In this document: positions 37,120 through 61,965 of the stretch, piece by piece
How positions within the stretch are numbered: position 1 is the first letter of the stretch
How the letters are laid out: every line of letters begins with the position of its first letter
From: Pseudomonadota bacterium
GTDB lineage: Bacteria > Pseudomonadota > Alphaproteobacteria > Rhodobacterales > Rhodobacteraceae
Assembly: GCA_020161615.1 (NCBI GenBank)
Contig: JAIUPD010000009.1
Location: 166,105-230,104, forward strand
Length of the DNA stretch: 64,000 nt
Direction of reading: 5' to 3'
The notes under the pieces: model-generated
The model's input: the letters and a program-made list of their open reading frames with translations, nothing else
Databases searched by the model: none
Told to the model about the DNA's origin: nothing
Position numbers and translations under genes: made by a program

Positions 37120-37224
37120 GGGCGGGTCCCGGCATGGGGCGAGCGCGGGGAAATCAGCATGGCTGATGTCCGGGGCCGAAGCGGCGCCCGGGCAGGATTG
37201 GCCCGGGCGCCGCGACCGAAAGGA

Positions 37225-41171: not shown

Positions 41172-41235
41172 CCGCCCAAAGGCCCGGCCCCCCGACCAGA
41201 CGGTCACGGGCCGGGCCCCCAACCGGACAACAGAC

Positions 41236-41778: not shown

Positions 41779-41781
41779 GCC

Positions 41782-43089: not shown

Positions 43090-43119
43090 ACCCCCTTCAA
43101 AACCAAGGAGAAGACCCTC

Positions 43120-44530: not shown

Positions 44531-44558
44531 GCGCCCCTGCCGGCAACGGCGGGGGCGT
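44531..44558. terminator. Bidirectional hairpin between convergent genes
   Basis: GCGCCCCTGCCG (44531-44542) pairs with CGGCGGGGGCGT (44547-44558) around a GCAA loop, allowing two wobble pairs. It lies between the end of the LigM-like gene and the stop of the MBL gene. No long U-tract is seen on either strand. Confidence 0.5.
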
Positions 44559-45535: not shown

Positions 45536-45600
45536 GGCCGTTTCCTGCGTCTCTGAAGGGAAAAGGGGCGGACGCACGGCGCGCCCGCCCCTGGCTTCGA

Positions 45601-47100
45601 TCAGTTCAGCGTGGCGCCGCGCAATTGCAGGAAGCCGTCGCCGGTCTGGAACACCCCGGTCAGATCCGCGCGCATGACGTAGAGCGGGGCCTGGTGATAC
45701 AGATAGATCACCGGAATGTCGGTCGCGGCGACCCCGGCGGCCTCGATGAACAAGGCGCGGCGGTCTTCGGGATCGGTGGCCGAGCGGGTGCGATCCAGCA
45801 GATCGTCCATCTCGGCGCTGGCATAGCGGCCGACGTTGCGCCCGCCGGTGGAATGCAGAACCTGATAGATCAGCGTGTCCATGTCATTGGCGTATTGCGG
45901 GCCGATGGGTCCCCAGGCTTCGAAATTGCCCTCGTTGGTCAATTGCAGTGTGGTGGCGAAATCGACGACATCGAGGCGCGTGTCGAACCCGGCTTCGTTG
46001 GACATGGCCTGGATCATCTCGCCCACGCGCACCGCAAGCGGGCGGTTCGGCACCAGAATGGTGAAGGGCACGGGCAGGGTGACGCCGGCTTCCTCCAGCA
46101 GCGCGCGCGCCGCCTCGGGGTCGCGGGCGGGCATCGGATGCCCGGTGTCGTAGAACACGGTGCCGGGCGCCGCGAACTGGTTCGCCGCGATATACTGGCC
46201 GGCGAAGGCCACATCGACAATCGCCTGCCGGTCGAGGCTCAGCTCGAAGGCGCGGCGCACGCGCGGGTCCTGCATCGGGCCGGGGCGGTTGAGGTTGAAC
46301 ATCAGCGCCTGGTTGTTGGGCGAGAGGTTCTGCATGATGGTGTATTGCGCCGGATCGGCGACCGAGCCCGCATTCGACGGATCCAGCTTCTCGATCAGGT
46401 CGACATCGCCCGATTGCAGGTTGGCCAGGCGCACGGAATCGTCAGGGATGATACGGAAAACGATGCTGTCGAAAGCATAATCCGCGGCGAAGCGATAGTC
46501 GGGATCGCGTTCCAGCGTGATGCTGTCCTGCGCCACGCGGTTAACAAAGCGATAGGGTCCGATGCAGACCGGCTCGCGCCCGATATCGGCGCCCATCGCC
46601 GCGACCTGCGCGGGCGAGAAGATCACGCCGGTCGGACCGGCCAGCTTGCTCAGCAGCTGGGCCGCGGGCTCCGCCACGGTGATGAGGACGGTATAGGGAT
46701 CGACGACCGAAACATCGGTGATCGAGCTGATGTCATTGGCCCGCTGCGACCCGGGCGCGCGGGCACGGTTGATCCCGGCCTGCACCGCCTGGGCGTTGAA
46801 AGGGGTGCCATCCTGGAAATTCTGCCCCTCGACCAGATGCAGGGTCAGTTCGGTGCCGCTGTCCGACCATTCCCAGCTTTCGACCAGACCGGGAAGGATG
46901 TTGAGGTCGGTGTCCGTGGACAGCAGCCGCTCGCACATCGTGTAGAGGACGGTCACCGCGGTCTGTGCCGCGGTGGTCACCGGGTCCAGCGCGTCGGGAT
47001 CGTCGGCCAGGGCAATGCGCAGCGTCTGGGCCCCGGCCGTGCCTGCCATGAGTGCGCCCGCCAGCGCCAGCGCGCTGGCACCAAGTCTGGAGAATCGCAT
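45601..47100 (-). CDS. Peptide/solute-binding protein (SBP_bac_5), orphan, proposed partner of the 53-60 kb permeases
   Basis: The product is 499 aa. The signal peptide is FSRLGASALALAGALMAGTAGAQ. SBP_bac_5 marks are LRIALADDPDALDPVTTAAQTAV, LLSTDTDLNILPGLVESWEWSDSGTELTLHLVEGQNFQDGTPF and GREPVCIGPYRFVN. No permease or ATPase genes follow it. Its promoter carries TGATCTTTGATCA (47118-47130), the same palindrome as the permease operon at 60.27 kb. I infer that it is the missing receptor of that transporter. Confidence 0.9.
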   Translation of the reverse strand: MRFSRLGASALALAGALMAGTAGAQTLRIALADDPDALDPVTTAAQTAVTVLYTMCERLLSTDTDLNILPGLVESWEWSDSGTELTLHLVEGQNFQDGTPFNAQAVQAGINRARAPGSQRANDISSITDVSVVDPYTVLITVAEPAAQLLSKLAGPTGVIFSPAQVAAMGADIGREPVCIGPYRFVNRVAQDSITLERDPDYRFAADYAFDSIVFRIIPDDSVRLANLQSGDVDLIEKLDPSNAGSVADPAQYTIMQNLSPNNQALMFNLNRPGPMQDPRVRRAFELSLDRQAIVDVAFAGQYIAANQFAAPGTVFYDTGHPMPARDPEAARALLEEAGVTLPVPFTILVPNRPLAVRVGEMIQAMSNEAGFDTRLDVVDFATTLQLTNEGNFEAWGPIGPQYANDMDTLIYQVLHSTGGRNVGRYASAEMDDLLDRTRSATDPEDRRALFIEAAGVAATDIPVIYLYHQAPLYVMRADLTGVFQTGDGFLQLRGATLN

Positions 47101-47117
47101 GAAGTACCCCTCTCTGT

Positions 47118-47130
47118 TGATCTTTGATCA
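47118..47130. promoter_or_regulatory. TGATC palindrome 1 (proposed GntR operator)
   Basis: TGATCTTTGATCA is a perfect 5-3-5 palindrome 17 nt upstream of the SBP start (minus) and 110 nt from the divergent hydrolase start. On the minus strand an AGATAT hexamer lies directly upstream of it, so it would block a promoter. Identical core at 53051 and 60328. Confidence 0.65.
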
Positions 47131-47240
47131 CATATCTGAGACACTGAGGGATGCCGGGCGCCCCTGTCAACATGGAAGATGGGGACCGCTCCCATTTCGC
47201 GATTTCTGCCCGCAACGCAGGCATTTCCCGAGGAACGATG

Positions 47241-48089
47241 ATGGCAATCGAGACACTTTCGCCCGCGCCGCAGGTCAACGCCGAGGCGCAGGCCTATTCC
47301 GACGAATGCCTGCGCCGGGCGGCGCTGGCGGTGGAGAGGGGCGACTGCCGCTATCTGCCCGATATCACCTATGGACCAGACCCCCTGCAACGCCTTGATA
47401 TCTGGGCACCGAAACCGGCGGGCGCCCCTGCGGGCCTGCCGGTCCTGGTGTTCTTCCATGGCGGCAATTTCACCCATGGCTACAAGGAATGGTGCGCCTT
47501 CATGGCACCCGCCATCACCGCCTTCCCGGCGCTGCTGGTTGCTGCGGGCTACCGTCACGCGCCGGGGACGTCCTATCGCGCCATCATCGGCGACGGGCTG
47601 GCAGCGCTGAAACTGGTCTCCGACCGAATCGCCGAATGGGGCGGCGATCCTCGGCGGGTCTGGCTGGGCGGACATTCGGCCGGGGCGCAGATGGTTTGCG
47701 AGATCGCCCTGGACCATGAGCGCCGCGCCGCTGCCGGGCTGGGGGACGAGGCCTTTCGCGGGGTTTTTCCGATCAGCGGCAATTACCGGCGCAGCCTCAG
47801 CGCTCTTGAAACCGACCCGGCGCTGCGACAGCCCGAGGGCACGCCGGACAGCCCGCTGGACCGCGCGGGCGCGGCGCGGCATCCCTTCCTGCTGGCCTGG
47901 GGCGGCGAAGAGAAGCCCTATGTACACGAAGGCGGGCAGGCAATGGCCGAGGCGATGGAGGCCGCGGGCGCCGATGTGTCCCGGCTGGTCATTCCCGGCC
48001 AGGACCATTTCCAGGTACATCTGTCCTGCACCGCACCCGGAGGTGCCTGGCTGGCCGCGGTGCAGGCGGCGATGTCCGGGGCGCCGTAG
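47241..48089 (+). CDS. Alpha/beta hydrolase (esterase/carboxylesterase-type), paralogue 1
   Basis: The product is 282 aa. The oxyanion motif is FFHGGNFTHGYKEW and the nucleophile elbow is GGHSAGAQM. Late GQDHFQVH may supply the catalytic histidine. I choose ATG 47241 rather than 47238 because GAGGAA then lies 5 nt away. It is clearly similar to the 60.37-kb hydrolase: both read HGG..THG.KEWC.FMAP. Both lie divergent to a transporter gene and near the same palindrome. The substrate is unknown. Confidence 0.85.
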   Translation: MAIETLSPAPQVNAEAQAYSDECLRRAALAVERGDCRYLPDITYGPDPLQRLDIWAPKPAGAPAGLPVLVFFHGGNFTHGYKEWCAFMAPAITAFPALLVAAGYRHAPGTSYRAIIGDGLAALKLVSDRIAEWGGDPRRVWLGGHSAGAQMVCEIALDHERRAAAGLGDEAFRGVFPISGNYRRSLSALETDPALRQPEGTPDSPLDRAGAARHPFLLAWGGEEKPYVHEGGQAMAEAMEAAGADVSRLVIPGQDHFQVHLSCTAPGGAWLAAVQAAMSGAP

Positions 48090-48103
48090 CGCCCCGTCTC
48101 CCC

Positions 48104-48136
48104 GCGGTCAGTCAGCGGTCAGTCAGCGGTCAGCAG
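48104..48136. repeat. Three tandem copies of an 11-nt unit
   Basis: GCGGTCAGTCA occurs at 48104-48114 and 48115-48125, and a variant GCGGTCAGCAG at 48126-48136. It spans the stop of the minus-strand hydrolase gene and adds extra stop codons there. It may be a replication-slip product. Confidence 0.7.
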
Positions 48137-48949
48137 CCGGACCATCGGATGCGCCGGATCGGCCAGCCCATCCAGCACGTCGAAATGGTGGCGGTCGGGC
48201 TCGGCCCAGGCCGCCGTCCGGGCGCCGAGGCCGGTCCAGACATTCGCCAGAAGCGCGTTCTGGCGGCGGAATTCCTCGCGCTCGCCGCCGCCGACCCAGG
48301 CCATCATCCGCACCGGCTTGACGGGACGCAGCAGGGCCGGGCTTTCGGCAAGGGCCTCGGCCTCGTCGATCTGCAGGGTCTCGTTCAGGCGCGATTGCAT
48401 GAGCGGGCGCAGGTCGAACAGGCCCGAGATCGGCAGGCAGATCGACACCCGCGCGATGACCTCGGCGGGCAGGGGCGTGCCCTCGCTGAGCATGCGCGCG
48501 GTCAGATGGCCGCCCGCCGAATGGCCGGTGATGGCGATCGGGCCCGGCACCTCGGTCGCGGCGGCGGTGATCGCGGCGCCGATCTGGCGGACGATCCCGG
48601 CAATGCGCACCTGCGGGCAAAGGTCATACGAAGGCATCGCCACGGCATAGCCATGCTGCACGGCGCCTTGCGCGAAATGCGACCAATAGCTGTTGTCGAG
48701 GGACATCCAGTAGCCGCCGTGGATGAACACAACCAGGCCCCGCGGCGCGCCGATGGGCAGGAACAGGTCATAGCGGTGGCGTTCGCCGGGGCCATAGCTC
48801 TGCCCCAGCCGGGCGCGGCCCGCCGACTGCATGGTCTGCCGGTAATCGGCGGCGGATTTGACCCAGGCCTCGGGCCAGCGGTCGCCCCGGGCAATATGGA
48901 TGCCGTTGCTGTAGGCGTCGGTGAAATCGCTGACGTGGTGAAAAATCAT
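48119..48949 (-). CDS. Alpha/beta hydrolase, arylformamidase-like
   Basis: The product is 276 aa. The pattern FIHGGYWMSLDNSYWSHFAQGAVQHGYAVAMPSYDLCPQVRIAGIVRQI followed by ITGHSAGGHLTARML is that of the eukaryote-type kynurenine formamidase/esterase family. It could in principle supply the KynB step absent from the kyn operon, but it is the third gene of hyuB-hyuA-hydrolase (4-nt overlap), so cleavage of the HyuAB product or substrate is more likely. A longer frame to 49012 lies inside hyuA. Confidence 0.82.
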   Translation of the reverse strand: MIFHHVSDFTDAYSNGIHIARGDRWPEAWVKSAADYRQTMQSAGRARLGQSYGPGERHRYDLFLPIGAPRGLVVFIHGGYWMSLDNSYWSHFAQGAVQHGYAVAMPSYDLCPQVRIAGIVRQIGAAITAAATEVPGPIAITGHSAGGHLTARMLSEGTPLPAEVIARVSICLPISGLFDLRPLMQSRLNETLQIDEAEALAESPALLRPVKPVRMMAWVGGGEREEFRRQNALLANVWTGLGARTAAWAEPDRHHFDVLDGLADPAHPMVRLLTAD

Positions 48950-51039
48950 GCCTGGCCTTCCTTGCGGCTGATGCGGTGCAACAGCAGGTTTCCGTCCGCT
49001 TCGACATGGCATTGCCAGCCGGGGAGAATCCAGACCGTCGTGTCATCCTGTTCGACGATCAGCGGCCCTTCCAGCCGGTCGCCGGGGGCAAGGCTGTCGC
49101 GGCGACGGAAAAGCGCCTCGTGCCATTCCCCGCGCGAGAAGACGCGGCGGTGACGGCGCGCACCGGGGGCGGGCGGACTGGCCTGCAGGGCGGCGTCGGT
49201 GAGTGCCGGTTCCGGTAGCGAAACCGAGAGGCGGATGGTCGAGACGCGGACCCGCTCGTCCCGGCTGGAAAAGCCGTAAAGCCGTTCGTGCTCGCGGTGG
49301 AAGAGGTCGAGCAGCGCCGCGCCGTCGAGTGTTTCCCGCAGCGCTTCGGGAACAAAGATCTCCAGCGCATGCGCCTGATCGGGGAAGCGCATTTCCGCCA
49401 TCAGCCGGAAGGCCAGCGGCCGGGCTTCGGCGCCCGGCGTCTCGCCCCGGATCCAGCCTGTGCCCTCGGCGGCCAGCGCGGCGACGGCCTCGGCCACGGC
49501 CTCGAACCCCGCGCCATCGGGCAGAAGCGTCGCCGAGAGCGAGCGGCCGTAATCACGGCGGATGTCGGCCAGCGCGGCGCCCAGCGCACAAAGCGTGCCG
49601 GGGGTGCGCGGGATGATCACGCGATCAAGGCCCGCCTCCTCGGCCAGCATGCAGGCATGGGTTGCACCGGCGCCGCCGAACGCCACCAGCGAGAAGTCGC
49701 GCTGATCGAGCCCGCGCTGCGCCAGCAGCTTCAGCATCTCGACCGACATCATCGCCGTCGCCACCTGCAGGGCCGCATCCGCCGCCCGCTGCGCCCGGTC
49801 TTCGCCGGGCGGCAGGCCCAGCGTGTCGCCCAGCGCGGCCAGCGCAGCGGCCGAGGGCGCGGGATGCAGGGGCATCCGGCCACCGAGGAAGCTGTCGGCC
49901 GCAAGGATCCCGCTGGTCAGGTAGCAATCGGTGATGGTGGGCACCTGCGCGCCACGGCCATAGCAGACCGGCCCCGGGTCCGATCCGGCGCTTTCCGGCC
50001 CGATCTTCAGCACCTTCTGGGCGTCTACCGTCAGAAGCGACCCGCCGCCCGCGCCGATGGCGGTGACGGCGATGACCGGCAGGATGATCGGGAACTCGCC
50101 GATCCGGGCCTCGTTCGTGTATTCCGGCTGGCCGTCCACCACCACGGCCATGTCGGTCGAGGTGCCGCCCATGTCCAGCGTCACCAGCCGCCCGCGCAAC
50201 CGCACCGGGCTTTCGAGCACCGCGGCCGTCACCCCCGTCGAGGGGCCGGACAGCGCCGCGTCGATGGGCCGGGCGCGGGCCGAGGCCAGCGAGACGGAGC
50301 CGCCGTTGTTCGTGGTGATGAACACCGGCATGGTCAGGCCCAGCCCGGCCAGCCGGTCGGTCAGCCGGTCGAAATACCCCTCCATCAGGGGCTGCACATA
50401 GGCGTTGAGCGCGGCCAGCATTCCGCGTTCGTATTCGCGGATCTCGGGCCAGAGTTTCGCGCTTTCGCTGATCGGCAGGTCGGGCAGGCGGCTGCGGATG
50501 GCCCCGGCGACCTCGGCTTCCAGAGCGGGATGGCGATAGGAATTGACCAGCATCAGCGCCACCGCATCGACCCCGGCCGCCGACAGCGACGCGGCAAGGG
50601 CATCGAGCGCGGCCGCGTCGGGCCGCCGGTCGATCACCCCCTCGGCCGTTACCCGAGCGTCGATCTCGAACACGCGCTGACGCGGGATCAGCGGCACCTC
50701 GCGTTTCAGCGTGAAATCGAAGGCCGAGGCCATGCGCGAGCGCGCGATCTCCAGCACGTCGCCATTGCCGCGCGACACGACCAGCGCCAGCCGGGCGCCG
50801 CGGCGCTGCAGGATGGTGTTCAGCCCCAGCGTGGTGCCGTGCATGATGCGGCTGACCTGCGCGGGCGCGATGCCGGCGCGATCCATCAGGCCGCGCAGCC
50901 CCTCTTCGACCGCGCGGGAGGGATCCGAGGGGACGCTGGGCTGCTTGAAGGCCACGCGGCGGCCATCGGCCTCGCGGATCGCCACCAGGTCGTTGAACGT
51001 GCCGCCCACGTCGATGCCGATACGCCAGCCTCCGCTCAT
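48946..51039 (-). CDS. Hydantoinase A / oxoprolinase family subunit, set 2
   Basis: The product is 697 aa. The ASKHA features WRIGIDVGGTFNDLVAI, HGTTLGLNTILQRRGAR and LVTLDMGGTSTDMAVV are plain, as is the GGGS and GPESAGSDPGPVCYGRG part. It overlaps hyuB by 4 nt and the downstream hydrolase by 4 nt. The pair could be an ATP-driven amidohydrolase for a lactam, hydantoin or related cyclic amide. Other family members are carboxylases, so the label stays general. Confidence 0.9.
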   Translation of the reverse strand: MSGGWRIGIDVGGTFNDLVAIREADGRRVAFKQPSVPSDPSRAVEEGLRGLMDRAGIAPAQVSRIMHGTTLGLNTILQRRGARLALVVSRGNGDVLEIARSRMASAFDFTLKREVPLIPRQRVFEIDARVTAEGVIDRRPDAAALDALAASLSAAGVDAVALMLVNSYRHPALEAEVAGAIRSRLPDLPISESAKLWPEIREYERGMLAALNAYVQPLMEGYFDRLTDRLAGLGLTMPVFITTNNGGSVSLASARARPIDAALSGPSTGVTAAVLESPVRLRGRLVTLDMGGTSTDMAVVVDGQPEYTNEARIGEFPIILPVIAVTAIGAGGGSLLTVDAQKVLKIGPESAGSDPGPVCYGRGAQVPTITDCYLTSGILAADSFLGGRMPLHPAPSAAALAALGDTLGLPPGEDRAQRAADAALQVATAMMSVEMLKLLAQRGLDQRDFSLVAFGGAGATHACMLAEEAGLDRVIIPRTPGTLCALGAALADIRRDYGRSLSATLLPDGAGFEAVAEAVAALAAEGTGWIRGETPGAEARPLAFRLMAEMRFPDQAHALEIFVPEALRETLDGAALLDLFHREHERLYGFSSRDERVRVSTIRLSVSLPEPALTDAALQASPPAPGARRHRRVFSRGEWHEALFRRRDSLAPGDRLEGPLIVEQDDTTVWILPGWQCHVEADGNLLLHRISRKEGQA

Positions 51040-53027
51040 GCCGCCACCTCCCGTTCCAATTGCTCGATTGCCTGCGCGAAGGCGTCGCGGGTCTGGGCCG
51101 GCTCCTCGATCCGGGGCAGGCCGCCGTCTTTCAGCGCGGGCAGGACGGATTCATAAAGAGCCTGCCGTTTGCGGCTGCGGATACGCGGCGTGAAGGGCGC
51201 CAGCGCCGCGATCAGGCGGCGCACCAGATCGTCGGGAAAGGCCTCGTCCCAAGAGCGCCGGAAGGGCCCGGCGTCAAGCGTCGGCACCGTGTCGCGGGGC
51301 TGGCATCGCAGGGCAGAGGTCGCCGCTTCGTCCACCTCCTCGCCCTGGATGACCACGCCGTAATCGTCCCGCGCCGAGGGGACCGAGACAAAGCCGCAAA
51401 GCACATCCTGCAACACCGCCTCCGCCGGACGGGTAAAGGGATCGCCGAAGCCGCCGCCGCCCGGGGTCATGAAGGTGATCGTGTCGCCCTTGGCCAGCGG
51501 CAGGTAGTCCAGCCGGCTGACCTCGCGCTCGTCGGGGCGCCCCATGTTGACCACCACCCGGCAGCGTGCGGCAGGGCGCCCGCCAGCGCCGCCCCAGGGC
51601 GTGAAGCGGAAGCGCTCCAGCCCGCGGGCCATCACCGCCAGATCGTCGCGCAGCATGCGGATCCGGTAGATCAGCCCGCAGCCGCCGCGCCAGCGCCCGG
51701 GTCCGGCGGAATCGCACCGCAGGCCGTAATGTTCAACCAGCACGGGCGCCTCGTCCTCGGTCCGTTCGATGGGCGAGTTGCGGGTGTTGGACAGACCGGC
51801 CTCGCGCCCGTCGATCCCGTCCGATCCCTGCCGCGAGCCCGAGCCGCAGACCAGCGACTGAATGACCATCGGCCGCGTCTCGCCCGTGACCGGATCGGGC
51901 GACACAAGCACCACCGGCAGGACGGTGCCGCCGCCCGCGACCGGCACCAGCCCCGGATCGGCCTGGTGCAGCGCGCCCGAAACCGCATCCAGCAGCCGCA
52001 TGACGGTCGCATGGCGCACCCCGCAAGCGGCGGGATAGACCGGGTTGAGGATGCTGCCCTCGGGCGCCGCGGCGCTGACCCGGTTCAGGAGGCCGTGGTT
52101 GTTCGGCGCGGTCCGGTCGCGGCTGGTGACCAGATGCAGCAGGCGCAGCGCCAGATAGGGGCTGCGCAAATTGGCGGTCGGCAGGTTGAAGGCCGATTGC
52201 ACCTGCGGGTCCGTGCCCGCGAAATCCAGATGGATATGACCGTCGCGCTTGGTCAGCGCGCAGCACAGCCGCACCGGCACGTTGGAATTGAAATCGTGGT
52301 CCAGATAGTCCCAGAACTCGAACCGGCCGTCCGGGATCGTGTCCAGCACCGTGCGGGCCTTCTCGGCGGCATAGTCGGCGATCTGGGTCTGGAACTGCAG
52401 CAGCGCCGCGACGCCATGTGCGCGGGCCACCGATTCGATGCGCTTCTGGCCCACCTCCAGCGCCGCCAGCATGGCGTTCAGGTCGCCCATGTTGGTCTTG
52501 GGCGCGCGGGAATTCAGCCGGTAGATAGCGAGCAGCGTCTCATCCGGGACGCCCCCGCGGACCAGCAGGACGGGCGGGATCTGCAGCCCTTCCTCATAGA
52601 CTTCGGCGAAGCGGGGCGAGATCGAACTGGGCACGCCGCCACCGATGTCCGAGGTATGCGCCATGGTCCAGCCATAGGCGACGAGCTGACCATCGACGAA
52701 GAAGGGCCGGACCAGCTGCAGGTCGGGCAGATGCGTTGACAGCCCGCCATTGGCATAGGGCAGGTTCGACAGGATGACATCGCCGGGCGATAGGGGCCCG
52801 ATGGCCTGGAGCGTCGGGTTGAGGTCCAGATCGACGAAGGCCGCAAGCCCCAGCGCCGCCGGATAGGCAAAGGCCTTGCCGTCGAGCCCGGCAATGGCGG
52901 TGCCGAAATCCGAGACCTCCTTGACATAGATCGAGCGGGCGCTGCGTTGCAGGGTCAGGCCCATTTCCTCGGCGGCGGCGACGCTCTTGTGGCGCAGGAT
53001 CTCGAAATCGGTGGTGTTCAGGCGCAT
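51036..53027 (-). CDS. Hydantoinase B / oxoprolinase family subunit, set 2
   Basis: The product is 663 aa, about 120 residues longer than the set 1 protein. It keeps SARSIYVKEVSDFGTAIAG, a GDVILSNLPYANGGLSTHLPD metal-site-like segment, the NPVYPAACGVRHATVMRLLDA region and GGGGFGDPFTRP near the C terminus. The extra C-terminal ~110 residues have no recognisable motif. ATG 53027 is preferred; a TTG 30 nt upstream would run into the palindrome. In this set B precedes A, the reverse of set 1. Confidence 0.88.
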   Translation of the reverse strand: MRLNTTDFEILRHKSVAAAEEMGLTLQRSARSIYVKEVSDFGTAIAGLDGKAFAYPAALGLAAFVDLDLNPTLQAIGPLSPGDVILSNLPYANGGLSTHLPDLQLVRPFFVDGQLVAYGWTMAHTSDIGGGVPSSISPRFAEVYEEGLQIPPVLLVRGGVPDETLLAIYRLNSRAPKTNMGDLNAMLAALEVGQKRIESVARAHGVAALLQFQTQIADYAAEKARTVLDTIPDGRFEFWDYLDHDFNSNVPVRLCCALTKRDGHIHLDFAGTDPQVQSAFNLPTANLRSPYLALRLLHLVTSRDRTAPNNHGLLNRVSAAAPEGSILNPVYPAACGVRHATVMRLLDAVSGALHQADPGLVPVAGGGTVLPVVLVSPDPVTGETRPMVIQSLVCGSGSRQGSDGIDGREAGLSNTRNSPIERTEDEAPVLVEHYGLRCDSAGPGRWRGGCGLIYRIRMLRDDLAVMARGLERFRFTPWGGAGGRPAARCRVVVNMGRPDEREVSRLDYLPLAKGDTITFMTPGGGGFGDPFTRPAEAVLQDVLCGFVSVPSARDDYGVVIQGEEVDEAATSALRCQPRDTVPTLDAGPFRRSWDEAFPDDLVRRLIAALAPFTPRIRSRKRQALYESVLPALKDGGLPRIEEPAQTRDAFAQAIEQLEREVAA

Positions 53028-53050
53028 GCGGAACTCCGTTGGTTGTCTTG

Positions 53051-53063
53051 TGATCAAAGATCA
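53051..53063. promoter_or_regulatory. TGATC palindrome 2 (proposed GntR operator)
   Basis: TGATCAAAGATCA, 23 nt upstream of hyuB and 74 nt from the divergent DMT gene. On the minus strand a TTGACA (53073-53078) lies 9 nt upstream of it, so the palindrome covers the spacer and -10 of a possible hyuB promoter. Inferred repressor site. Confidence 0.65.
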
Positions 53064-53137
53064 TCTATCTAATGTCAAGAGGTATGGTCGGGTCTCCGCG
53101 CCGCACCCGGGTTCGTCCAGCGAGAGGGTGAAAAAAG

Positions 53138-53986: not shown

Positions 53987-53993
53987 CAGCGGG

Positions 53994-55811
53994 TCAGGCC
54001 CGCATCACCAGATGGTCCTCGCCCACCGCCTCGTAGCGGCGCCGGGGCGGCACGTAGCCCGCCGGATGGAGCGGCGTGCGCAGCTCGTCGGTGGACAGCG
54101 CCCGCCGGACGTGGCGCAGCGCCGGATCGGGGACAGGCACCGCGTCGATGAGCTTGCGGGTATAGGGATGCTGCGGGTCGCCGAAGATGGCGGCGCGCGG
54201 CCCGATCTCGACAATCTCGCCCATGTACATCACCGCGACACGGTGGCTGATCCGCTCGACCACCGACATGTCGTGGCTGATGAACAGATAGGCCAGGCCC
54301 AGGCTGGCCTGAAGCTCCATCATCAAATTGACCACCTGCGCCTTGACCGAGACATCGAGGGCCGAGACCGCCTCATCGGCGATGATCACCTTGGGATTCA
54401 GGGCGAGCGCCCGGGCAATGCAGATCCTTTGCCGCTGTCCGCCCGAGAATTCGTGCGGGAAACGGCCCATCACCTCGGGCGACAGGCCCACCCGCCGCAG
54501 CAGTTCCGCCACCCGCGCCCGTCGCTCACCGGCATTGCCGACGCCATGCGCCACCAAGGGCTCGGCGATGGCGCTGCCGACGGTCAGGCGCGGGTTGAGG
54601 CTGGCGAAAGGGTCCTGGAACACCATCTGCGCGCTGGCCCTGAGGCGCCGCAGCCCCTCGCGCCCCAGGGACAGGACATCCTGCCCGTCCAGCGCGATGG
54701 CGCCGTCGGTCGGCTGGGTCAGGCGCAGGATGCTGCGGCCGGTGGTGGACTTGCCGCAACCCGATTCCCCGACCAACGCCAATGTCTCCCCCTGCCTGAG
54801 CGAGAAGGTGACCTTTTCGACCGCGTGCACCGCAAAGCGCGAGCGACGCAGGAACCCGCCCGAGGCGGTGCCGAAGCGCGTCGTCAGATCCGTGACCTTC
54901 AGTACCGGGGGCAGGTCGTGGCGCACGGTATCCTGCGCCGGGACGGTCGGCAGGGGCTGGCCGCTGTCGGGGTCGATGATCGGAAAGGGCGTGGGCAGGG
55001 CCTTGTCCCGCATCGAGCCCAGCACCGGCACCGCCGCCAGCAGGGCGCGGGTATAGGGCCGCGCCGGGCGGTGGAAGATCTGCGCCGTGGGGCCGCTTTC
55101 AACCACGTCGCCGCGGTACATCACCACGGTCCGGTCGGCCATCTGCGCGACGACACCCATGTCATGGGTGATGAAGAGGACCGACATCCCCTCTTCATCC
55201 TGAAGGGTCTTGATCAGTTCCAGAACCTGCCCCTGCACCGTCACATCCAGCGCGGTCGTGGGCTCGTCCGCGATCAGCAGCCGGGGGCGCGAGGCCAGCG
55301 CCATGGCGATCATCATCCGCTGCCGCATCCCGCCCGAGAGTTGGTGCGGATACTGGTCCAGACGGCTGCGGGCCGAGGGGATTCGGACCTTTTCCAGAAG
55401 CTCCAGCGCGCGGGCCTGCTGCGCCGCAGGCGACAGCGCCGGATCCTGCCGCAGGATCGCCTCGCCGATCTGGTCGCGCACGGTGAAGACCGGGTTGAGC
55501 GAGGTCATCGGCTCCTGAAAGATCATGGCGATGTCGCGGCCGCGCACCTGCCGCATCTGATCGGGGGTCAGCGTCGTCAGCTCGCGCCCGTCGAAGCGGA
55601 TGGAGCCCGTGACGCGCGCGTTGTCGCGCGGCAGCAGACCCATCACCGACAGCGAGGTCACGCTCTTGCCCGAGCCGGACTCGCCGACGATCGCCAGCGT
55701 CTCGCGCGGGGCGATGTCGAAGCTGACGTTGCGGATCACCTCGGTCCAGCCGGATTCGCCGCGGAACGCGGTGGTCAGGTCCCTGACCGACAGGACGGGG
55801 GTGTCGGTCAT
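53994..55811 (-). CDS. Dual ATPase of an oligopeptide/glutathione-type ABC transporter (GsiA-like fusion)
   Basis: The product is 605 aa with two complete nucleotide-binding domains. Domain 1: Walker A GESGSGKSV, signature LSGGMRQRMMIAMAL, Walker [13 protein letters not shown]. Domain 2: Walker [10 protein letters not shown], signature FSGGQRQRICIARAL, Walker B VIIADEAVSALD (an Ala replaces the usual Pro). A linker of about 60 residues joins them. It replaces separate DppD and DppF, as in GsiA. It is the last gene of the minus-strand operon that begins with the dppB-like gene at 60197. Confidence 0.93.
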   Translation of the reverse strand: MTDTPVLSVRDLTTAFRGESGWTEVIRNVSFDIAPRETLAIVGESGSGKSVTSLSVMGLLPRDNARVTGSIRFDGRELTTLTPDQMRQVRGRDIAMIFQEPMTSLNPVFTVRDQIGEAILRQDPALSPAAQQARALELLEKVRIPSARSRLDQYPHQLSGGMRQRMMIAMALASRPRLLIADEPTTALDVTVQGQVLELIKTLQDEEGMSVLFITHDMGVVAQMADRTVVMYRGDVVESGPTAQIFHRPARPYTRALLAAVPVLGSMRDKALPTPFPIIDPDSGQPLPTVPAQDTVRHDLPPVLKVTDLTTRFGTASGGFLRRSRFAVHAVEKVTFSLRQGETLALVGESGCGKSTTGRSILRLTQPTDGAIALDGQDVLSLGREGLRRLRASAQMVFQDPFASLNPRLTVGSAIAEPLVAHGVGNAGERRARVAELLRRVGLSPEVMGRFPHEFSGGQRQRICIARALALNPKVIIADEAVSALDVSVKAQVVNLMMELQASLGLAYLFISHDMSVVERISHRVAVMYMGEIVEIGPRAAIFGDPQHPYTRKLIDAVPVPDPALRHVRRALSTDELRTPLHPAGYVPPRRRYEAVGEDHLVMRA

Positions 55812-56953
55812 GCCGTGGCCCTCCGCCGGGCTTCGGCCAGCAATGGGGCAATGACGCTGCGCCCCAGCGCGCGGGCGCGCGGGATGGACCAGCCGGTCAC
55901 CGGATCGGGGCGTTCGCTCACGTCCTTGAAGGTCTGTTCCAGCAGGATGGACAGCGCCTGTGGGAAGCGCTCGCCGATCCAGTTCCAGCCCATCGACAGG
56001 TCGGCCTGGGCCGGGCAGCCGCCAGGATAGGCCCGCCCCGGGATCAGATCGGGATTGGCGGCGGCCCAGGTGGCCTCGAACAGGTCGAAAGGCCGCCGCC
56101 TGTCCGCCGTCCACGAGGGGACATTCTCGGACGGCCAGATGAAGAGGAAGGGAAGCTCGTTGTCGGCGTGGCAATCGAGGCTGACATCCACGCCCGACGC
56201 CTCCATCGCCGCGCGCACCGCGGCCACCTCGGCCGCCGGGGCGGCGCTGTTCCATTCGCGGTTCAGGTTGACCCCGGCCGGGGTGGCGCGGGTCTGGCCT
56301 GCCGTCCAGCCGTCGGGGTTCACGTTCGGCACGATATGCAGCGTCGCCGCGGCCAGCAGCGCGCGGCTGTCGGCGTCGGGCAGGGCAAGCCTCTCGGCCA
56401 GACCGTCGAGGAAATAGGCGCCCTGCGTCTCGCTGGGGTGCTGGCGGGCGATGACCCAGAACTGCAAGGGTCCCTCGCCCAGACGGAAGCGGTCGATGGT
56501 CCGCCCCTGCCCCGACTGCCCCAAGACATCGTGCCGCGCGCCGGGCAGGGAAGCCAGCCGGTCACGCTGGGCAGCCTCGTGCGCGGGCCAGACGGGCGGG
56601 AACTTGGCGTAGAATACCCGTTCCTGCCGGGGGGTGTGCCAGAAGCTGAAGGCGCGGCCGTCAAAGGCATGATCCAGCCGGAACCAATCGATGCCGTCAT
56701 AGCTGGCCACCGGCCCCGCGCCGTTCCATTGATGGGAATCCCCGTTGCGATTGGGCAGGCGGCCCCTGAGCGAATCAGAGGCATTCTCGATCACGAAGCG
56801 GCGGAAGAGGTTGGCCGGGCCCGTCGCCTCGAAGCAGTACCAGCACAGGAAGGGCGTGCCCTCGTCGGCCGGCAGCGACAGGCGGATGCCGCCGGAGTCC
56901 GTGGCGTCCAGAACGCGGATCCGTCCCGAAGGAAGAGCGGCATCGATCTGCAT
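55808..56953 (-). CDS. M14-family metallocarboxypeptidase (cytosolic carboxypeptidase-like)
   Basis: The product is 381 aa. An N-terminal beta domain (FLCWYCFEATGPANLFRRFVIENASD) is like that of cytosolic carboxypeptidases, followed by the Zn site ARQHPSETQG (HxxE) and DCHAD for the second histidine. NVNPDGW, GVNLNREW and ILLEQTFK (probable catalytic Glu) complete it. There is no signal peptide, so it works in the cytoplasm, trimming a peptide- or amide-like compound after import. It overlaps the ATPase gene by 4 nt. Confidence 0.88.
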   Translation of the reverse strand: MQIDAALPSGRIRVLDATDSGGIRLSLPADEGTPFLCWYCFEATGPANLFRRFVIENASDSLRGRLPNRNGDSHQWNGAGPVASYDGIDWFRLDHAFDGRAFSFWHTPRQERVFYAKFPPVWPAHEAAQRDRLASLPGARHDVLGQSGQGRTIDRFRLGEGPLQFWVIARQHPSETQGAYFLDGLAERLALPDADSRALLAAATLHIVPNVNPDGWTAGQTRATPAGVNLNREWNSAAPAAEVAAVRAAMEASGVDVSLDCHADNELPFLFIWPSENVPSWTADRRRPFDLFEATWAAANPDLIPGRAYPGGCPAQADLSMGWNWIGERFPQALSILLEQTFKDVSERPDPVTGWSIPRARALGRSVIAPLLAEARRRATA

Positions 56954-56957
56954 GGGC

Positions 56958-58025
56958 TTATCCGTTCAGGTTGTAGTGCATGATCCGGCCGTGCCGCCCG
57001 TGGCGGTCGCGTTCCAGATCGTAGACATCGCCCTCCAGCTCGACCCGCTGCGCCAGGATCGCCGCCAGGTCGCGGCGGTCCTGATCGGTCAGCGTCAGGC
57101 CGAACAGGCGGCGGTGCGCTTCCAGATGGCCGCCGTGGCGGACGCCGACGATGATCGCCGTGACCTCGGGCCGGTCCAGCATCGCGCCCATCGCCACATC
57201 GGCAACATTGACGCCGTGACGGTCGGCGATGCGGCGCAGGGTCTTGAGGATCTCCTGGAACAGGTCCCAGCCGCCCATGTCGTCGATGATCAGCTTGTAT
57301 TTGGTCAGCGAGCGGTTTTCGAGCCGCGTCGCCTCGCCCGGGTCAGCGACGCCCAGCCATTTGTCGCTGAGGAACCCGCCCGCGACCGTGCCGTAACACA
57401 GCAGCTTCGCCCCGGCCTTTTGCAGCAGGGGCACCAGCTTGTGCGCCGGGCGGTTGTCGAGGATCGAATACTGCACCTGCGTGGTGGCCAGCGGATAGCC
57501 GGCGTCCAGCAGTTGCTGCGTGCAGGCGGCGTTGAAATTCGTGGTGCCCAGCAGGGTGATCCGGCCTTCCTTCTGGAAGTCGGTCAGCCAGCCCGCGACC
57601 TCGACATAGCGCTCGACCGCGGTATTCCACCAGTGGAACTGCACCAGATCCAGCGCGTCCAGCCCCAGCCGCGCGCGCGAGCGGTCGATGGTGGCCTGCA
57701 GATCGGCGCGGGAGATGCTGTCCAGCACGGCCAGATCGGGGACGCATTTGGTATGCACCCGGATCGGCGCCAGCAGGTCGGCGCGTCCCTCGGCGATCAT
57801 CTTGCGGCGGAAATCGCCGATCATCTGTTCGACACCCGTATAGATGTCGGCGCAATCGAAGGTGACGATGCCGCTTTCGACGTAATCCCGCATCTCGGCG
57901 ATGGCCCGGTCGCGGTCGACGGCGCCATGTCCGCCGGCCAGATGCCAGCCACCCTTCAGGACCCGGCTGATCCGGTAGCCGGGGGCGATGTCGGTCATGT
58001 CGACCGGGATTGATGCGAGGGTCAT
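56958..58025 (-). CDS. Aldo/keto reductase family oxidoreductase
   Basis: The product is 355 aa. The tetrad is visible: Asp in FDCADIYTG with Tyr shortly after, Lys in VHTKCVPD and His in LVQFHWW. The C-terminal phosphate-binding region AIIVGVRHGGHLEA is present. It would use NAD(P)H on an aldehyde or ketone. ATG 58025 is chosen because the longer frame reads into the previous gene. It overlaps the TIGR04076 gene by 4 nt. Confidence 0.88.
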   Translation of the reverse strand: MTLASIPVDMTDIAPGYRISRVLKGGWHLAGGHGAVDRDRAIAEMRDYVESGIVTFDCADIYTGVEQMIGDFRRKMIAEGRADLLAPIRVHTKCVPDLAVLDSISRADLQATIDRSRARLGLDALDLVQFHWWNTAVERYVEVAGWLTDFQKEGRITLLGTTNFNAACTQQLLDAGYPLATTQVQYSILDNRPAHKLVPLLQKAGAKLLCYGTVAGGFLSDKWLGVADPGEATRLENRSLTKYKLIIDDMGGWDLFQEILKTLRRIADRHGVNVADVAMGAMLDRPEVTAIIVGVRHGGHLEAHRRLFGLTLTDQDRRDLAAILAQRVELEGDVYDLERDRHGRHGRIMHYNLNG

Positions 58026-58384
58026 GCGTTGCCTTCCTGGCCGTCCATCGGCACTTTCGTTGTCTCTGCGTGGTCGAACCGGCGCCGGGCGGTCCGGGTG
58101 ATGCGGAAGCGGGTCGGACAATGGGGATCGGGATTGCCGATCTCCGCATCGGTGGTCATCCAGTCGGCGGGATGGGTGTCGCGCTGCTTGGCGGCCAGAA
58201 GCGGCAACAGGGCCGCCAGCGAGTAGATCGAGAACCCCTGTCCCGGCGGCAGATGCAGCATCTCGCCGCGCAGCTCGAAGTAATCCCCTTCCCGGGCGCC
58301 GCTGTAGATCTTGCCGGGGCCGCTGCGGACCACCTCGACCTTCAGGTCCCAGAGTTCGAATTCGGTTTCCGCCACGGTGGTCAT
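58022..58384 (-). CDS. TIGR04076-family protein of unknown function
   Basis: The product is 120 aa. The KVEVVRSGPGKIYSGAREGDYFELRGE start, LPPGQGFSIYSLAALLPLLAAKQR and a WM...DPHCPTRFRI end match the small TIGR04076 pattern. No function is known for the family. Here it is bound by 4-nt overlaps to a permease and an aldo/keto reductase, which gives it an unusual, informative context. Confidence 0.8.
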   Translation of the reverse strand: MTTVAETEFELWDLKVEVVRSGPGKIYSGAREGDYFELRGEMLHLPPGQGFSIYSLAALLPLLAAKQRDTHPADWMTTDAEIGNPDPHCPTRFRITRTARRRFDHAETTKVPMDGQEGNA

Positions 58385-59246
58385 CCTTTCACTTCGAGTG
58401 CGTCCTGAAGCCCGTCGCCCAGCAGGTTGAAGCCCAGCACGGTGAGGAAGATCGCCAGCCCCGGCCAGATCGCGATCCAGGGCGCCAACGACAGCGAGGA
58501 CCGCGCCGAGTTCAGCATCGAGCCCCAGCTCGCATCCGGCGGTTGCTGGCCGAGGCCGAGGAAGGCCAGCGCGGCCTCGGCGATGATGGCGGTGGCGATG
58601 GCCAGCGTGGCCTGCACCACCAGCTGCGGGGTGATGTTGATGAAGATATGCCGCAGCAGGATCGACAGCGTGCCGGTGCCGATGGAATGCGCCGCCTCGA
58701 TATATTCCTCGACCTTGACGACCAGCACCTGCCCGCGGGCGATCCGGGCAAAGACCGGGGCGGTGGAGACGCCGATGGCGATCATCGCGTTCATCAGGCT
58801 GGGGCCGAGGAAGGCCGCAAGCGCAATCGCCAGGATCAGGAAGGGGATCGCGAGGAAGGCGTCGACGACGCGCATGATCACGGCATCCGTCGCACCGCCC
58901 AGATAGCCCGACACCATGCCGACGGGCACGCCGATGGCAAAGGCGATCGCCACCGAGACGAATCCCGCCAGCATCGAGGCCCGCGCGCCATAGATCACGC
59001 GCGACAGCACGTCGCGGCCCAGCTCGTCCGTGCCGAACCAATGGGCCGCGCTTGGCGCCTGGCGGACGGCGGTCCAGCTGGTCTGGTTGGGATCGAAGGG
59101 CGCAATCAGCGGGGCGAGGATCGCCAGAAGGGCGAAGGCCGCGACGATGAGCGCGCCGATCAGCGCCAGACGGTTGCGCAGAAAGCGCCGCAGGATGCGC
59201 GAGTTCAGCAGGCCGCCCCGCGGCCCTGCCAGGATCTGACCGGTGA

Positions 59247-59250
<4 letters not shown>
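58381..59250 (-). CDS. Peptide ABC transporter permease (DppC-like), system 3
   Basis: The product is 289 aa. It shows the N-terminal helix ALIGALIVAAFALLAILAPLIAPF, the WFGTDELGRDVLSRVIYGAR segment and EAA loop YIEAAHSIGTGTLSILLRHIFINI. The C terminus has ALAFLGLGQQPPDASWG. It is coupled to dppB by a 4-nt overlap. There is no binding-protein gene in this operon. Confidence 0.93.
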
Positions 59251-60197
<947 letters not shown>

Positions 60198-60266
60198 CCA
60201 CCCCTCCTGCGCCCGTCAGCCGCCCCGGTCTCGCCGCCAGGCAAGACCTTGCGTCGATCATTGATT

Positions 60267-60279
60267 TGATCTGTGATCA
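60267..60279. promoter_or_regulatory. TGATC palindrome 3 (variant)
   Basis: TGATCTGTGATCA has both TGATC/GATCA arms intact and a different 3-nt centre. It lies 69 nt upstream of the dppB-like start (minus strand). Its start is 61 nt from palindrome 4, so two dimers could co-operate across the intergenic region. Confidence 0.6.
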
Positions 60280-60327
60280 AAAGTACCATGGCAATCGGGC
60301 CCGAGCCTGTCAATGCTTTAAGATATG

Positions 60328-60340
60328 TGATCTTTGATCA
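60328..60340. promoter_or_regulatory. TGATC palindrome 4
   Basis: TGATCTTTGATCA, 24 nt upstream of the hydrolase ATG at 60365. An AGATATG lies just before it, as at palindrome 1. It is identical in core to 47118 and the reverse complement of 53051. Confidence 0.65.
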
Positions 60341-60364
60341 TAGTTCTGAAAATGAAGGATGCCG

Positions 60365-61198
60365 ATGATTTCTGCCGATATTGCGCCTCAGACCCCGATC
60401 AACCCGGCCGCCGATGCCTATGCGCTGACCTGCCTGGAGCGGTCTGCCTCCATTTTCCGCATCCCGGACATCGCTTTCGGGCCCCGGCCGGCGCAGCGGC
60501 TGGACCTTTATCTGCCCGAGGCCGGCGACAGACCCGGGGGCGCCCCGGTCTTTCTGTTCTGGCACGGCGGCGGCTATACCCATGGCCACAAGGAATGGTG
60601 TGGCTTCATGGCCCCGCCGCTGCTGGCGGCGGGGGCGATCTTCGTGTCGGCCAATTACCGGCTCTTCGACGAAGCCAGCAACGCCGAGGTGCATGACGAC
60701 GCCCGCGCCGCCTTGCGCTGGGTGCTGGAGAATATCGCCGACTACGGGGGCGATCCCTCGCGGCTGGTCATCGGCGGGCATTCTGCGGGCGCCAACATCG
60801 CCGCCCGTGTCGCGCTGGACGCCCCGGCCCGGCGCGCGGCCGGGATCCCCGACGAGGCGATCCGCGCCGTGATGGCGATGAGCGGCTCCTACCTCGCGCG
60901 CCGGGGGGACACCCATCCCGATCCGGCCCGGCGCCCCGCCCCGGGCGTGCCGGACGCGGTAGCAGAATTCACCGGGCCCAGCAGTGCCGCCTTCACCCTC
61001 GCCTGGGGCAGCGACGAGCGGGCGCCCTTCCCCCAGGCCGGGGCCGATTTCGCCCGGATCCTGCGCGAGCGGGGGCAGCCGGTGACCGAGATGATCTTTG
61101 CGGGCGACGATCATTTCTCGGTCCATCTGGCCACCGGTTCGGCGCGGAACCGCTATGTGCAGGCCGTGCTGCAGGCGCTGGACCTTGCGCCGATATAA
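60365..61198 (+). CDS. Alpha/beta hydrolase (esterase/carboxylesterase-type), paralogue 2
   Basis: The product is 277 aa. Oxyanion motif FWHGGGYTHGHKEW, elbow GGHSAGANI and late GDDHFSVH. It resembles the 47.24-kb hydrolase, sharing the KEWC.FMAP stretch. ATG 60365 is preferred to 60359 because GAAGG would then be 6 nt away rather than abutting. It is divergent from the permease operon. Confidence 0.85.
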   Translation: MISADIAPQTPINPAADAYALTCLERSASIFRIPDIAFGPRPAQRLDLYLPEAGDRPGGAPVFLFWHGGGYTHGHKEWCGFMAPPLLAAGAIFVSANYRLFDEASNAEVHDDARAALRWVLENIADYGGDPSRLVIGGHSAGANIAARVALDAPARRAAGIPDEAIRAVMAMSGSYLARRGDTHPDPARRPAPGVPDAVAEFTGPSSAAFTLAWGSDERAPFPQAGADFARILRERGQPVTEMIFAGDDHFSVHLATGSARNRYVQAVLQALDLAPI

Positions 61199-61257
61199 CC
61201 GATGGTGCGCCTGCGCCGTCTCCCGTAAAACCATCCTGTCCTGCGCCGGAGCTGACC

Positions 61258-61965
61258 GTGACCAAAGACGTTTCCGACACCCATTCGCCCATCGGCGAAG
61301 TCCATATGATCAAGGCCGAGACCATGCAGAGCCGGGTGCATGCGCAGCTGCGCGACCTGCTGATGCTGGGGCGCTTCCAGCCCGGCCAGGCGCTGAAGAT
61401 CTTCGAGCTGGCCCAGGCCTTCGGCACCTCGATCCAGCCGGTGCGCGAAAGCATCCGCCAGCTGGTGACGGAGCGCGCGCTGGAGGCGATGCCGAACCGC
61501 AGCGCCCGGGTGCCGCATCTGACGGTCGAGCGGCTGCGCGACCTCAAGCGGGTGCGGATGGCGCTGGAGGGGCTTGCGGCGGAATTGGCGGCGGAGCGGA
61601 TCACTGCGGACGAGGTCATGGCGCTTCGGTCTTATTGCGCGGCCGAGGCGGCGGCGGACGATTCCGGTGATGTGGAGGCGAGCGTACAGCAGAACATGCG
61701 GTTTCATTTCACGCTCTACCGCGCGGCAGGCTCGCCGACGCTGATGCCGCTGATCGAGAGTCTTTGGCTGCAGATCGGCCCCTGGGTTCGCCAGAGTGCC
61801 GAGAGTTTCGACGGGGCTGAGGGGCGGGGCACGATGATGCACCGGCTGGCGATCGAGGCGCTGGAGAAGGGCGATGCAGCCGGTGTCCGGCGGGCGATCG
61901 AGGACGACATCACCCGCACCTTCGACCTGGTGATGGCGAGCACGGGCGCGGCTGCGGCGACGTGA
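61258..61965 (+). CDS. GntR-family (FCD-type) regulator, proposed master regulator of the TGATC regulon
   Basis: The product is 235 aa from a GTG start with CGGAG 7 nt before it. The winged helix contains SRVHAQLRDLLMLGRFQPGQALKIFELAQAFGTSIQPVRESIRQLV. A helical FCD domain follows, with FHFTLYRAAGSPTLMPLIESLW giving metal/ligand histidines. It is directly downstream of hydrolase 2. FCD regulators bind short palindromes similar in layout to TGATCnnnGATCA. The link to the motif is inferred from proximity. Confidence 0.88.
   Translation: MTKDVSDTHSPIGEVHMIKAETMQSRVHAQLRDLLMLGRFQPGQALKIFELAQAFGTSIQPVRESIRQLVTERALEAMPNRSARVPHLTVERLRDLKRVRMALEGLAAELAAERITADEVMALRSYCAAEAAADDSGDVEASVQQNMRFHFTLYRAAGSPTLMPLIESLWLQIGPWVRQSAESFDGAEGRGTMMHRLAIEALEKGDAAGVRRAIEDDITRTFDLVMASTGAAAAT

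What the first reader, a model, noticed from the sequence alone, without database searches (positions are those of the whole stretch)
45601..61965. A possible undescribed import-and-hydrolysis regulon defined by a TGATC palindrome and a GntR protein
Seen: the 13-bp palindrome TGATCTTTGATCA (or its complement) at 47118, 53051 and 60328, and a variant at 60267. These lie in only three intergenic regions, each at the start of genes on both sides. The genes are a peptide-type binding protein, two paralogous alpha/beta hydrolases, hyuB-hyuA-arylformamidase-like hydrolase, a DMT exporter, and an operon of two permeases, a TIGR04076 protein, an aldo/keto reductase, an M14 carboxypeptidase and a dual ATPase. 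A GntR/FCD gene closes the block. Known: HyuAB and M14 enzymes cut cyclic amides and C-terminal residues. Inferred: one compound, possibly a cyclic or modified peptide or lactam, is imported and opened stepwise.
Basis: partly seen in the sequence, partly recalled or inferred. Interest (0 to 1): 0.82.

Follow-up and report, generated by a model that had tools for sequence, protein, structure and literature searches.

The report
GntR regulon around a peptide-type importer
A small block of bacterial genes for importing and cutting up an unknown peptide-like compound appears to be switched as a unit by one neighbouring regulator protein, because the same short DNA address is kept in front of these genes, and of related gene sets with similar regulators, in other bacteria.

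Summary
TGATCnnnGATCA lies at 47118, 53051, 60267 and 60328, in three divergent intergenic regions. The genome has 14 copies; the other ten lie inside called genes.

Comparison makes a regulon likely. Paracoccus sp. S-4012 keeps exact sites at abh1|SBP, at DMT|hyuB and before abh2, though its dppB|gntR region has only a two-mismatch site. The pattern, defined in the window, recurs within one mismatch upstream of gntR in 10 of 11 plasmid clusters whose GntR is about 42-46% identical; shuffles average 0.13. Those clusters carry gntR, TIGR04076 and an aldo/keto reductase beside a Liv-type importer. Regulator, operator, reductase and TIGR04076 protein are thus the steadier parts, with exceptions; importer and hydrolases vary.

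The substrate is not identified; a cyclic or modified peptide or lactam remains plausible inference. GntR binding was not tested, and the operator does not fit the published FadR-subfamily consensus. No paper describing the regulon was found in the searches made.

The parts
44558..45577 (-).
   Evidence: Pfam Lactamase_B_2/Lactamase_B; HLHFDH motif; 73% ortholog beside dppDF in Paracoccus sp. S-4012
45601..47100 (-). SBP family 5 (peptide-type) binding protein
   Evidence: Pfam SBP_bac_5 3.5e-75
47118..47130 (.). predicted GntR operator, exact TGATCTTTGATCA, SBP|abh1
   Evidence: exact site at the same junction in G394
47151..48089 (+). alpha/beta hydrolase abh1 (start codon uncertain)
   Evidence: Pfam Abhydrolase_3; GHSAG motif; 51% ortholog in L015
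48119..49012 (-). HaHSL-type esterase / arylformamidase-like hydrolase
   Evidence: NCBIfam NF058665 355 bits, cut-off 320; PDB 2pbl, 4e11
48946..51039 (-). hyuA-type ATP-dependent amidohydrolase subunit
   Evidence: Pfam Hydantoinase_A; below caprolactamase cut-off
51036..53027 (-). hyuB-type subunit
   Evidence: Pfam Hydantoinase_B 1.2e-133 (run on the frame to 53057, start taken at 53027)
53051..53063 (.). predicted GntR operator, exact TGATCAAAGATCA, hyuB|DMT
   Evidence: exact site at the same junction in G394
53138..53986 (+). DMT/EamA transporter
   Evidence: Pfam EamA
53994..55811 (-). fused dppD-dppF ATPase
   Evidence: ABC_tran (2 stretches) and oligo_HPY (2 stretches) on the frame 53994-56255; start taken at 55811
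55808..56953 (-). M14 cytosolic-type carboxypeptidase
   Evidence: Pfam; PDB 4a37 6e-62 alignment; HPSE and LDCHAD motifs
56958..58121 (-). aldo/keto reductase
   Evidence: Pfam Aldo_ket_red; PDB DepB alignment
58022..58381 (-). TIGR04076 family protein, function unknown
   Evidence: NCBIfam TIGR04076 50.9 bits, cut-off 33
58381..59250 (-). dppC permease
   Evidence: Pfam BPD_transp_1, OppC_N
59247..60197 (-). dppB permease
   Evidence: Pfam BPD_transp_1
60267..60279 (.). predicted GntR operator (TGATCTGTGATCA), dppB side
60328..60340 (.). predicted GntR operator, exact TGATCTTTGATCA, abh2-gntR side
   Evidence: exact site 19 bp before the abh2 ortholog in G394
60359..61198 (+). alpha/beta hydrolase abh2
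   Evidence: Pfam Abhydrolase_3; GHSAG
61258..61965 (+). GntR/FCD regulator
   Evidence: Pfam GntR and FCD; tree position

Best explanation
This is a local catabolic regulon of an FCD-type GntR protein. The GntR dimer binds TGATC-TKT-GATCA dyads that lie about 17-70 bp before the start codons of SBP-MBL, hyuBA-HSL, dppBC-TIGR04076-AKR-M14-dppDF and abh2-gntR, and so probably represses these units, itself included, until an inducer is present. The Dpp-type importer brings in a peptide-like amide or conjugate; M14, HyuAB, MBL and the esterase-type hydrolases cut or open it; AKR and the TIGR04076 protein act on a product that this regulator lineage senses. Shown: gene families, operator positions, recurrence of the operator with related GntR proteins, and the frequent company of gntR, TIGR04076 and AKR in relatives. 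Inferred: binding, repression, the inducer, the order of steps, the operon limits and the substrate class.
For: In this genome the palindrome is found between genes only in the block. Paracoccus sp. S-4012 has exact sites at DMT|hyuB, at abh1|SBP and 19 bp before abh2. In 17 chosen regions of six Dpp-clade clusters (2946 bp, window included) there are 9 exact and 13 within one mismatch, against means of 0.005 and 0.145 in 200 shuffles; the other 59 half-sites made of the same letters score at most 1, and only gap 3 gives exact sites (gaps 1 and 8 give 2 and 3 one-mismatch sites). A second set not used to define the pattern: 10 of 11 Liv-type clusters have it within one mismatch upstream of gntR; shuffles mean 0.13, max 2; best other half-site or gap 1. 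GntR homologs outside both groups: 8 of 41, Fisher p 2.5e-5 against the Liv set. In G769, of another family, a one-mismatch site lies between gntR and TIGR04076. GntR tree: Dpp clade 98/95, Liv clade 99/98.
Against: No binding or expression data. The operator lacks the GT-N3-AC core of published FadR-subfamily motifs. In the Dpp clade only 1 of 6 has a site within one mismatch in the 320 bp directly before gntR; in the window gntR follows abh2. In Paracoccus the dppB|gntR region has only a two-mismatch site. In G356 and G260 the exact site lies next to a second, different GntR. G358 has only a one-mismatch site; L083 none within 3 mismatches in the region scanned. G229, with M14, AKR, TIGR04076 and hyuBA but no Dpp-clade GntR, is not a clean negative: it has one one-mismatch site before its own 43% GntR. 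The promoter scans gave one weak match, 9 of 12, 0.3 expected, reading towards dppB across the 60328 site, and none at the other two regions. How the Dpp and Liv GntR clades join is unresolved. AKR is missing in 1 and TIGR04076 in 2 of 6 Dpp-clade loci.
Confidence: 0.7

Rival explanations
1. The palindrome is the operator of a different regulator encoded elsewhere, and the local GntR controls something else.
For: In G356 and G260 the exact site is adjacent to a second GntR of 31-35% identity. The A/T-spacer motif occurs in 172 of 394 family genomes, whereas this GntR (E at most 1e-50) is in 4 of 394. GntR homologs outside the two groups carry it in 8 of 41 upstream regions.
Against: The motif recurs with related GntR proteins in other genera and families and sits before gntR in 10 of 11 Liv-type clusters. 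In the window block GntR is the only regulator found among the proteins scanned; Paracoccus also has a LysR gene beside abh2.
Confidence: 0.14
2. The motif is real but only part of the block is co-regulated for one purpose; hydrolases such as hyuAB and abh were recruited for a different substrate and share the regulator by chance of insertion.
For: Gene content varies: no AKR/TIGR04076 hit in Paracoccus; no M14, hyu or abh hit in 36 kb around the G260 cluster; in G356 AKR and M14 are separated from the site-bearing SBP-dpp operon by about 24 kb.
Against: The hyuB, SBP/abh1 and abh2 junctions keep exact sites in two genera.
Confidence: 0.25
3. Chance: an AT-rich palindrome in AT-rich intergenic DNA.
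For: Intergenic DNA here is visibly AT-richer, and TGATCWWWGATCA occurs 0-7 times per genome in the family.
Against: Shuffles of the same regions give 0.005 exact sites on average against 9 observed; the other half-sites listed give none exact.
Confidence: 0.01
4. The real operator is a direct repeat of TGAT in 7-base steps, not a dyad.
For: Five of ten Liv-type regions checked have three TGAT at 7-base steps, and in 9 of 11 Liv-type sites the fifth base of the left half is not C.
Against: In the Dpp clade 9 of 12 listed sites are exact dyads, also with TAT and TTC centres.
Confidence: 0.15

Closest known systems
FCD (FadR-subfamily) GntR regulons, e.g. E. coli McbR (PDB 4p9f), Agrobacterium Atu1419
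   Same: Domain architecture; short palindrome at promoters of catabolic genes; autoregulation likely here, as shown for Atu1419 (passages of PMC7797058).
   Different: Operator TGATCTKTGATCA lacks the GT-N3-AC core given for the subfamily (passages of PMC4494728) and differs from the ATGTATACAT of Atu1419.
Caprolactam catabolic cluster of Pseudomonas jessenii (CapAB)
   Same: HyuAB-type ATP-dependent amide-opening enzyme (abstract of PMC6061476).
   Different: Scores 402.6 and 219.5 against cut-offs of 1000. The omega-aminotransferase named in that abstract is not among the families found in the block; a peptide-type importer and M14 are present.
gntR-TIGR04076-AKR with Liv-type importer on plasmids of Hyphomicrobiales and Rhodobacterales
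   Same: Related regulator, operator, TIGR04076 protein and reductase.
   Different: Liv-type instead of Dpp-type importer (annotation in 9, tblastn in the 2 unannotated records); M14 gave no hit above the script's threshold in those 11 loci, and no hydantoinase is annotated between gntR and the importer genes. No paper on this module turned up either.
Gsi/Dpp peptide importers
   Same: SBP, two permeases, fused ATPase; best NCBIfam hits include GsiA/GsiB.
   Different: Below the GsiA, GsiB, GsiC and GsiD cut-offs; among the models listed the ATPase passes such ones as PRK11308 and NikD/NikE, each matched twice; ligand unknown.

Membership tests
FCD-type (FadR subfamily) GntR regulator | N-terminal GntR wHTH and C-terminal FCD domain | tested here: met
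   PF00392 5.8e-14 and PF07729 5.1e-24, both above cut-off
FCD-type (FadR subfamily) GntR regulator | operator with TKGT/ACMA boxes, GT and AC usually 3 nt apart | tested here: not met
   consensus TGAT[C/g/t]T[T/G]TGATCAnA compared with the passage of PMC4494728; the same paper names exceptions such as NanR and BioR
GntR regulon of this block | regulator binds the palindrome | not testable with these tools
   only comparative evidence
Caprolactamase CapAB | NCBIfam equivalog cut-offs | tested here: not met
   402.6 and 219.5 bits against 1000
Hydantoinase/oxoprolinase HyuA/HyuB superfamily | Hydantoinase_A/B domains | tested here: met
M14 cytosolic-type carboxypeptidase | M14_N and M14 domains with zinc ligands | tested here: met
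   (HPSE and LDCHAD motifs; ligand roles recalled)
TIGR04076 | score above curated cut-off | tested here: met
   50.9 against 33 bits; window copy lacks two Cys seen in the 16 relatives aligned
GsiABCD glutathione importer | NCBIfam equivalog cut-offs | tested here: not met
   GsiA 788.8 against 1077, GsiB 164.7 against 594; GsiC 283.1 against 463, GsiD 284.8 against 484

The most novel reading that the evidence does not exclude
A previously undescribed GntR operator class (TGATCTKTGATCA) marks a mobile sensing-and-processing cassette, gntR-TIGR04076-aldo/keto reductase, that is plugged into different importers (Liv or Dpp) and hydrolase sets across two alphaproteobacterial orders, all feeding one undiscovered natural compound or its conjugates, with TIGR04076 as a new enzyme or carrier of that pathway.
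Probability: 0.28. Interest if true: 0.65.

Novelty: new member of a known kind. Interest (0 to 1): 0.46.

Why it matters
It turns a loose group of orphan hydrolases into a defined, testable regulon with a predicted operator and regulator, and ties the uncharacterised TIGR04076 family to an aldo/keto reductase and an importer in a number of genomes. The operator gives a handle to collect further members, and a GntR-based screen would find the inducer and so the substrate.

Tried and rejected
Substrate from structure: a single-sequence model of the TIGR04076 protein had mean pLDDT 61 and the fold search gave nothing (best E 0.39); rejected as uninformative. Caprolactam and glutathione as substrates: equivalog cut-offs not met, which lowers but does not exclude related compounds. 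Tryptophan/kynurenine theme: tryptophan dioxygenase-like and class V aminotransferase hits near the G356 cluster and kynU in Sagittula raised it, but the G356 dioxygenase hit is partial (124 against 390.7 bits) and the aminotransferases matched no NCBIfam model at 1e-30; not adopted. Promoter scans: see evidence against. Paper searches: TIGR04076 (1 paper, one passage read, a microcompartment cluster); five palindrome strings (1 plant paper, listing only); GntR with hydantoinase and related terms, 5 of 6 (0); GntR/FCD/TGATC/operator/palindrome, 4 of 5 (3; passages of two read); hydantoinase clusters, 4 of 6 (14, 12 listed; one abstract and outline read); GntR regulons in Rhodobacterales, 4 of 5 (85, 12 listed). 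None seen describes this regulon; RegPrecise itself could not be searched.

Selection to be told: of 134 plasmid records with a GntR match at 1e-25 I fetched 15 with that query, by hand and mostly top-ranked; 11 had TIGR04076 and AKR hits and 4 did not. The 'Liv set' is defined by those two hits, not by the motif, but I had looked at 7 of the 11 before the formal test; they include near relatives (L081/L139, L140/L141). The 17 regions of the Dpp set were picked after sites had been seen, one (G394 9200-9500) is not purely intergenic, and its 13 hits within one mismatch include two that overlap an exact site; one search lists 12 because one of these was cut off. Five duplicate rows were dropped before the count. 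The L028 paralog does not appear in the output and is not in the counts. In one search I labelled G915 as Dpp group, but its importer was not established (no Liv transporter hit at 1e-20 in 30 kb) and it groups with the Liv side (93/88).
Full report
Observation. The sites fall in three divergent intergenic regions: SBP|abh1, hyuB|DMT and dppB|abh2, the last with two sites. From the coordinates the gaps between site and start codon are about 17 bp for SBP, 23 for hyuB, 18-24 for abh2 and 69 for dppB. In the whole genome of 4.87 Mb the pattern TGATCnnnGATCA occurs 14 times. A codon-periodicity gene call puts all ten sites outside the block wholly inside genes and none of the four block sites; an earlier test by open frames alone was weaker, since stray frames also touch block sites. 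With an A/T spacer and one mismatch allowed there are 11 places, of which 7 outside the block, all in called genes; the most operator-like of these, on contig C14, is inside a gene with transposase-like rve and HTH_21 domains. Clustering P is 1.2e-7, with block limits taken from the finding. Among intergenic DNA of this genome the signal is thus private to the block.

Anatomy. Pfam and NCBIfam confirm the gene list. The dual ATPase is a fusion of the dppD and dppF types; its longest frame, 53994-56255, overlaps the M14 gene, so its start was taken near 55811. Motifs found by script: GHSAG in all three alpha/beta hydrolases, HPSE and LDCHAD in M14, HLHFDH in the MBL protein; in the reductase I read the D, Y, K and H expected of the family off the alignment (residue roles recalled). 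The MBL-fold hydrolase at 44558-45577 belongs to the block: it starts 23 bp after SBP on the same strand, and its 73% ortholog follows dppDF in Paracoccus.

Same block elsewhere. A pattern-based scan of species genomes with the M14 protein gave seven loci: Paracoccus sp. S-4012 (68%), five Parvularculaceae M14 genes of 34-38% without other block genes in the stretches held, and one partial match. The Paracoccus genome has nine exact palindromes; three lie on the block's contig, at DMT|hyuB, at abh1|SBP and 19 bp before abh2, where the other neighbour is a LysR gene instead of dppB. Its dppB|gntR region has only a two-mismatch site. It has SBP, abh1, HSL, hyuBA, DMT, abh2, dppBC, dppDF, M14, MBL and gntR, but no TIGR04076 or reductase hit. 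In the window's family M14 was found in 5 of 394 genomes (E at most 0.001) and GntR (E at most 1e-50) in 4 of 394; GntR at E 1e-45 was found in 1 of 18 genomes of the window's genus, 2 of 292 of the order sample and 2 of 125 of the genus of the Paracoccus strain, the second of these falling outside the clade. The block is thus rare and patchy, which suggests horizontal transfer (inference).

Regulator and operator together. In G260 an exact site lies before SBP-dppBC-dppDF-TIGR04076-AKR, with the gntR ortholog (54%) at the far end; in G356 an exact site lies before an SBP-dpp operon on the contig that carries gntR (59%), AKR and M14; in both, another GntR also lies next to the site. G358 has a one-mismatch site between abh1 and SBP; G769, of another family, has one between gntR and TIGR04076. 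Directly before gntR, within 320 bp, only G769 of the six Dpp-clade members has a site within one mismatch. G229 carries M14, AKR, TIGR04076 and hyuBA without a GntR of this clade; it has no exact site in the 36 kb read and no A/T-spacer site in its genome, but it does have a one-mismatch site, with a GTC centre, before its own 43% GntR, so it is a partial control only.

Second test. GntR homologs of about 42-46% identity on plasmids of Rhizobium, Allorhizobium, Neorhizobium, Phyllobacterium, Mesorhizobium, Acuticoccus, Thioclava, Alloyangia and Paroceanicella lie in a different cluster: gntR, TIGR04076, AKR and a binding protein opposite livGFHM, with a second reductase in 9 of 11 (the two unannotated records by tblastn). 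The pattern defined in the window is present within one mismatch in front of gntR in 10 of these 11 (L083 lacks it), against a mean of 0.13 in dinucleotide shuffles, and no other half-site of the same letters or other gap reaches more than 1. Only one of the ten is exact in the 13-mer (L084). GntR homologs outside both groups have it within one mismatch in 8 of 41, so the wider subfamily partly shares the operator. The combined consensus is TGAT[C/g/t]T[T/G]TGATCAnA. In five of ten Liv-type regions three TGAT follow at 7-base steps, so a direct-repeat reading is not excluded there. The GntR tree gives a Dpp clade (98/95) and a Liv clade (99/98); how they join is unresolved.

How it works. Most likely the GntR dimer represses the transcription units from dyads close to the gene starts and releases them when it binds a pathway compound, as FCD regulators do (Atu1419 as an example, passages of PMC7797058). 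The Dpp importer and the battery of amide and ester hydrolases fit import and stepwise opening of a peptide-like compound. What the relatives add is a likely centre of the pathway: the reductase (5 of 6 Dpp-clade loci) and the TIGR04076 protein (4 of 6) tend to stay with the regulator, and both stay in the Liv-type clusters, although that set was chosen by their presence. My model is that the regulator senses a compound near the reductase step, and that each lineage adds its own way in. This is inference; the substrate is not identified, and Paracoccus, without those two genes at the locus, is an exception that the model must explain.

Known or not. The parts are of known families. The operator is unlike the FadR-subfamily consensus in a comparative study (passages of PMC4494728), which itself lists exceptions. 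One paper of the library mentions TIGR04076, in a microcompartment cluster, and no paper found describes this regulon. I therefore call it a new member of a known kind, with an unusual operator.

Noticed in passing
35190-38844: A second Dpp/Opp-type importer (SBP family 5 and two permeases) lies upstream of the block; no exact TGATC palindrome is near it.
   Followed up: no
40164-44517: TRAP transporter genes (DctP, DctM) followed by a GcvT-domain protein, a separate possible catabolic unit.
   Followed up: no
58022-58381: The window's TIGR04076 protein lacks two Cys present in the 16 relatives aligned (YSG where most have YCG, GNPDPHC where most have ACPDPNC).
   Followed up: partly
L144 8890 and L143 8931: GntR homologs beside 3-keto-5-aminohexanoate cleavage and hydroxyacyl-CoA dehydrogenase genes (Cereibacter sphaeroides plasmid pB, Sagittula) carry a related site TGATCTGTGATCT.
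   Followed up: partly
family genomes G370, G176, G247, G388: These genomes hold 5-7 exact TGATCWWWGATCA sites and no hit to this GntR at E 1e-50, hinting at other regulators with the same operator.
   Followed up: no
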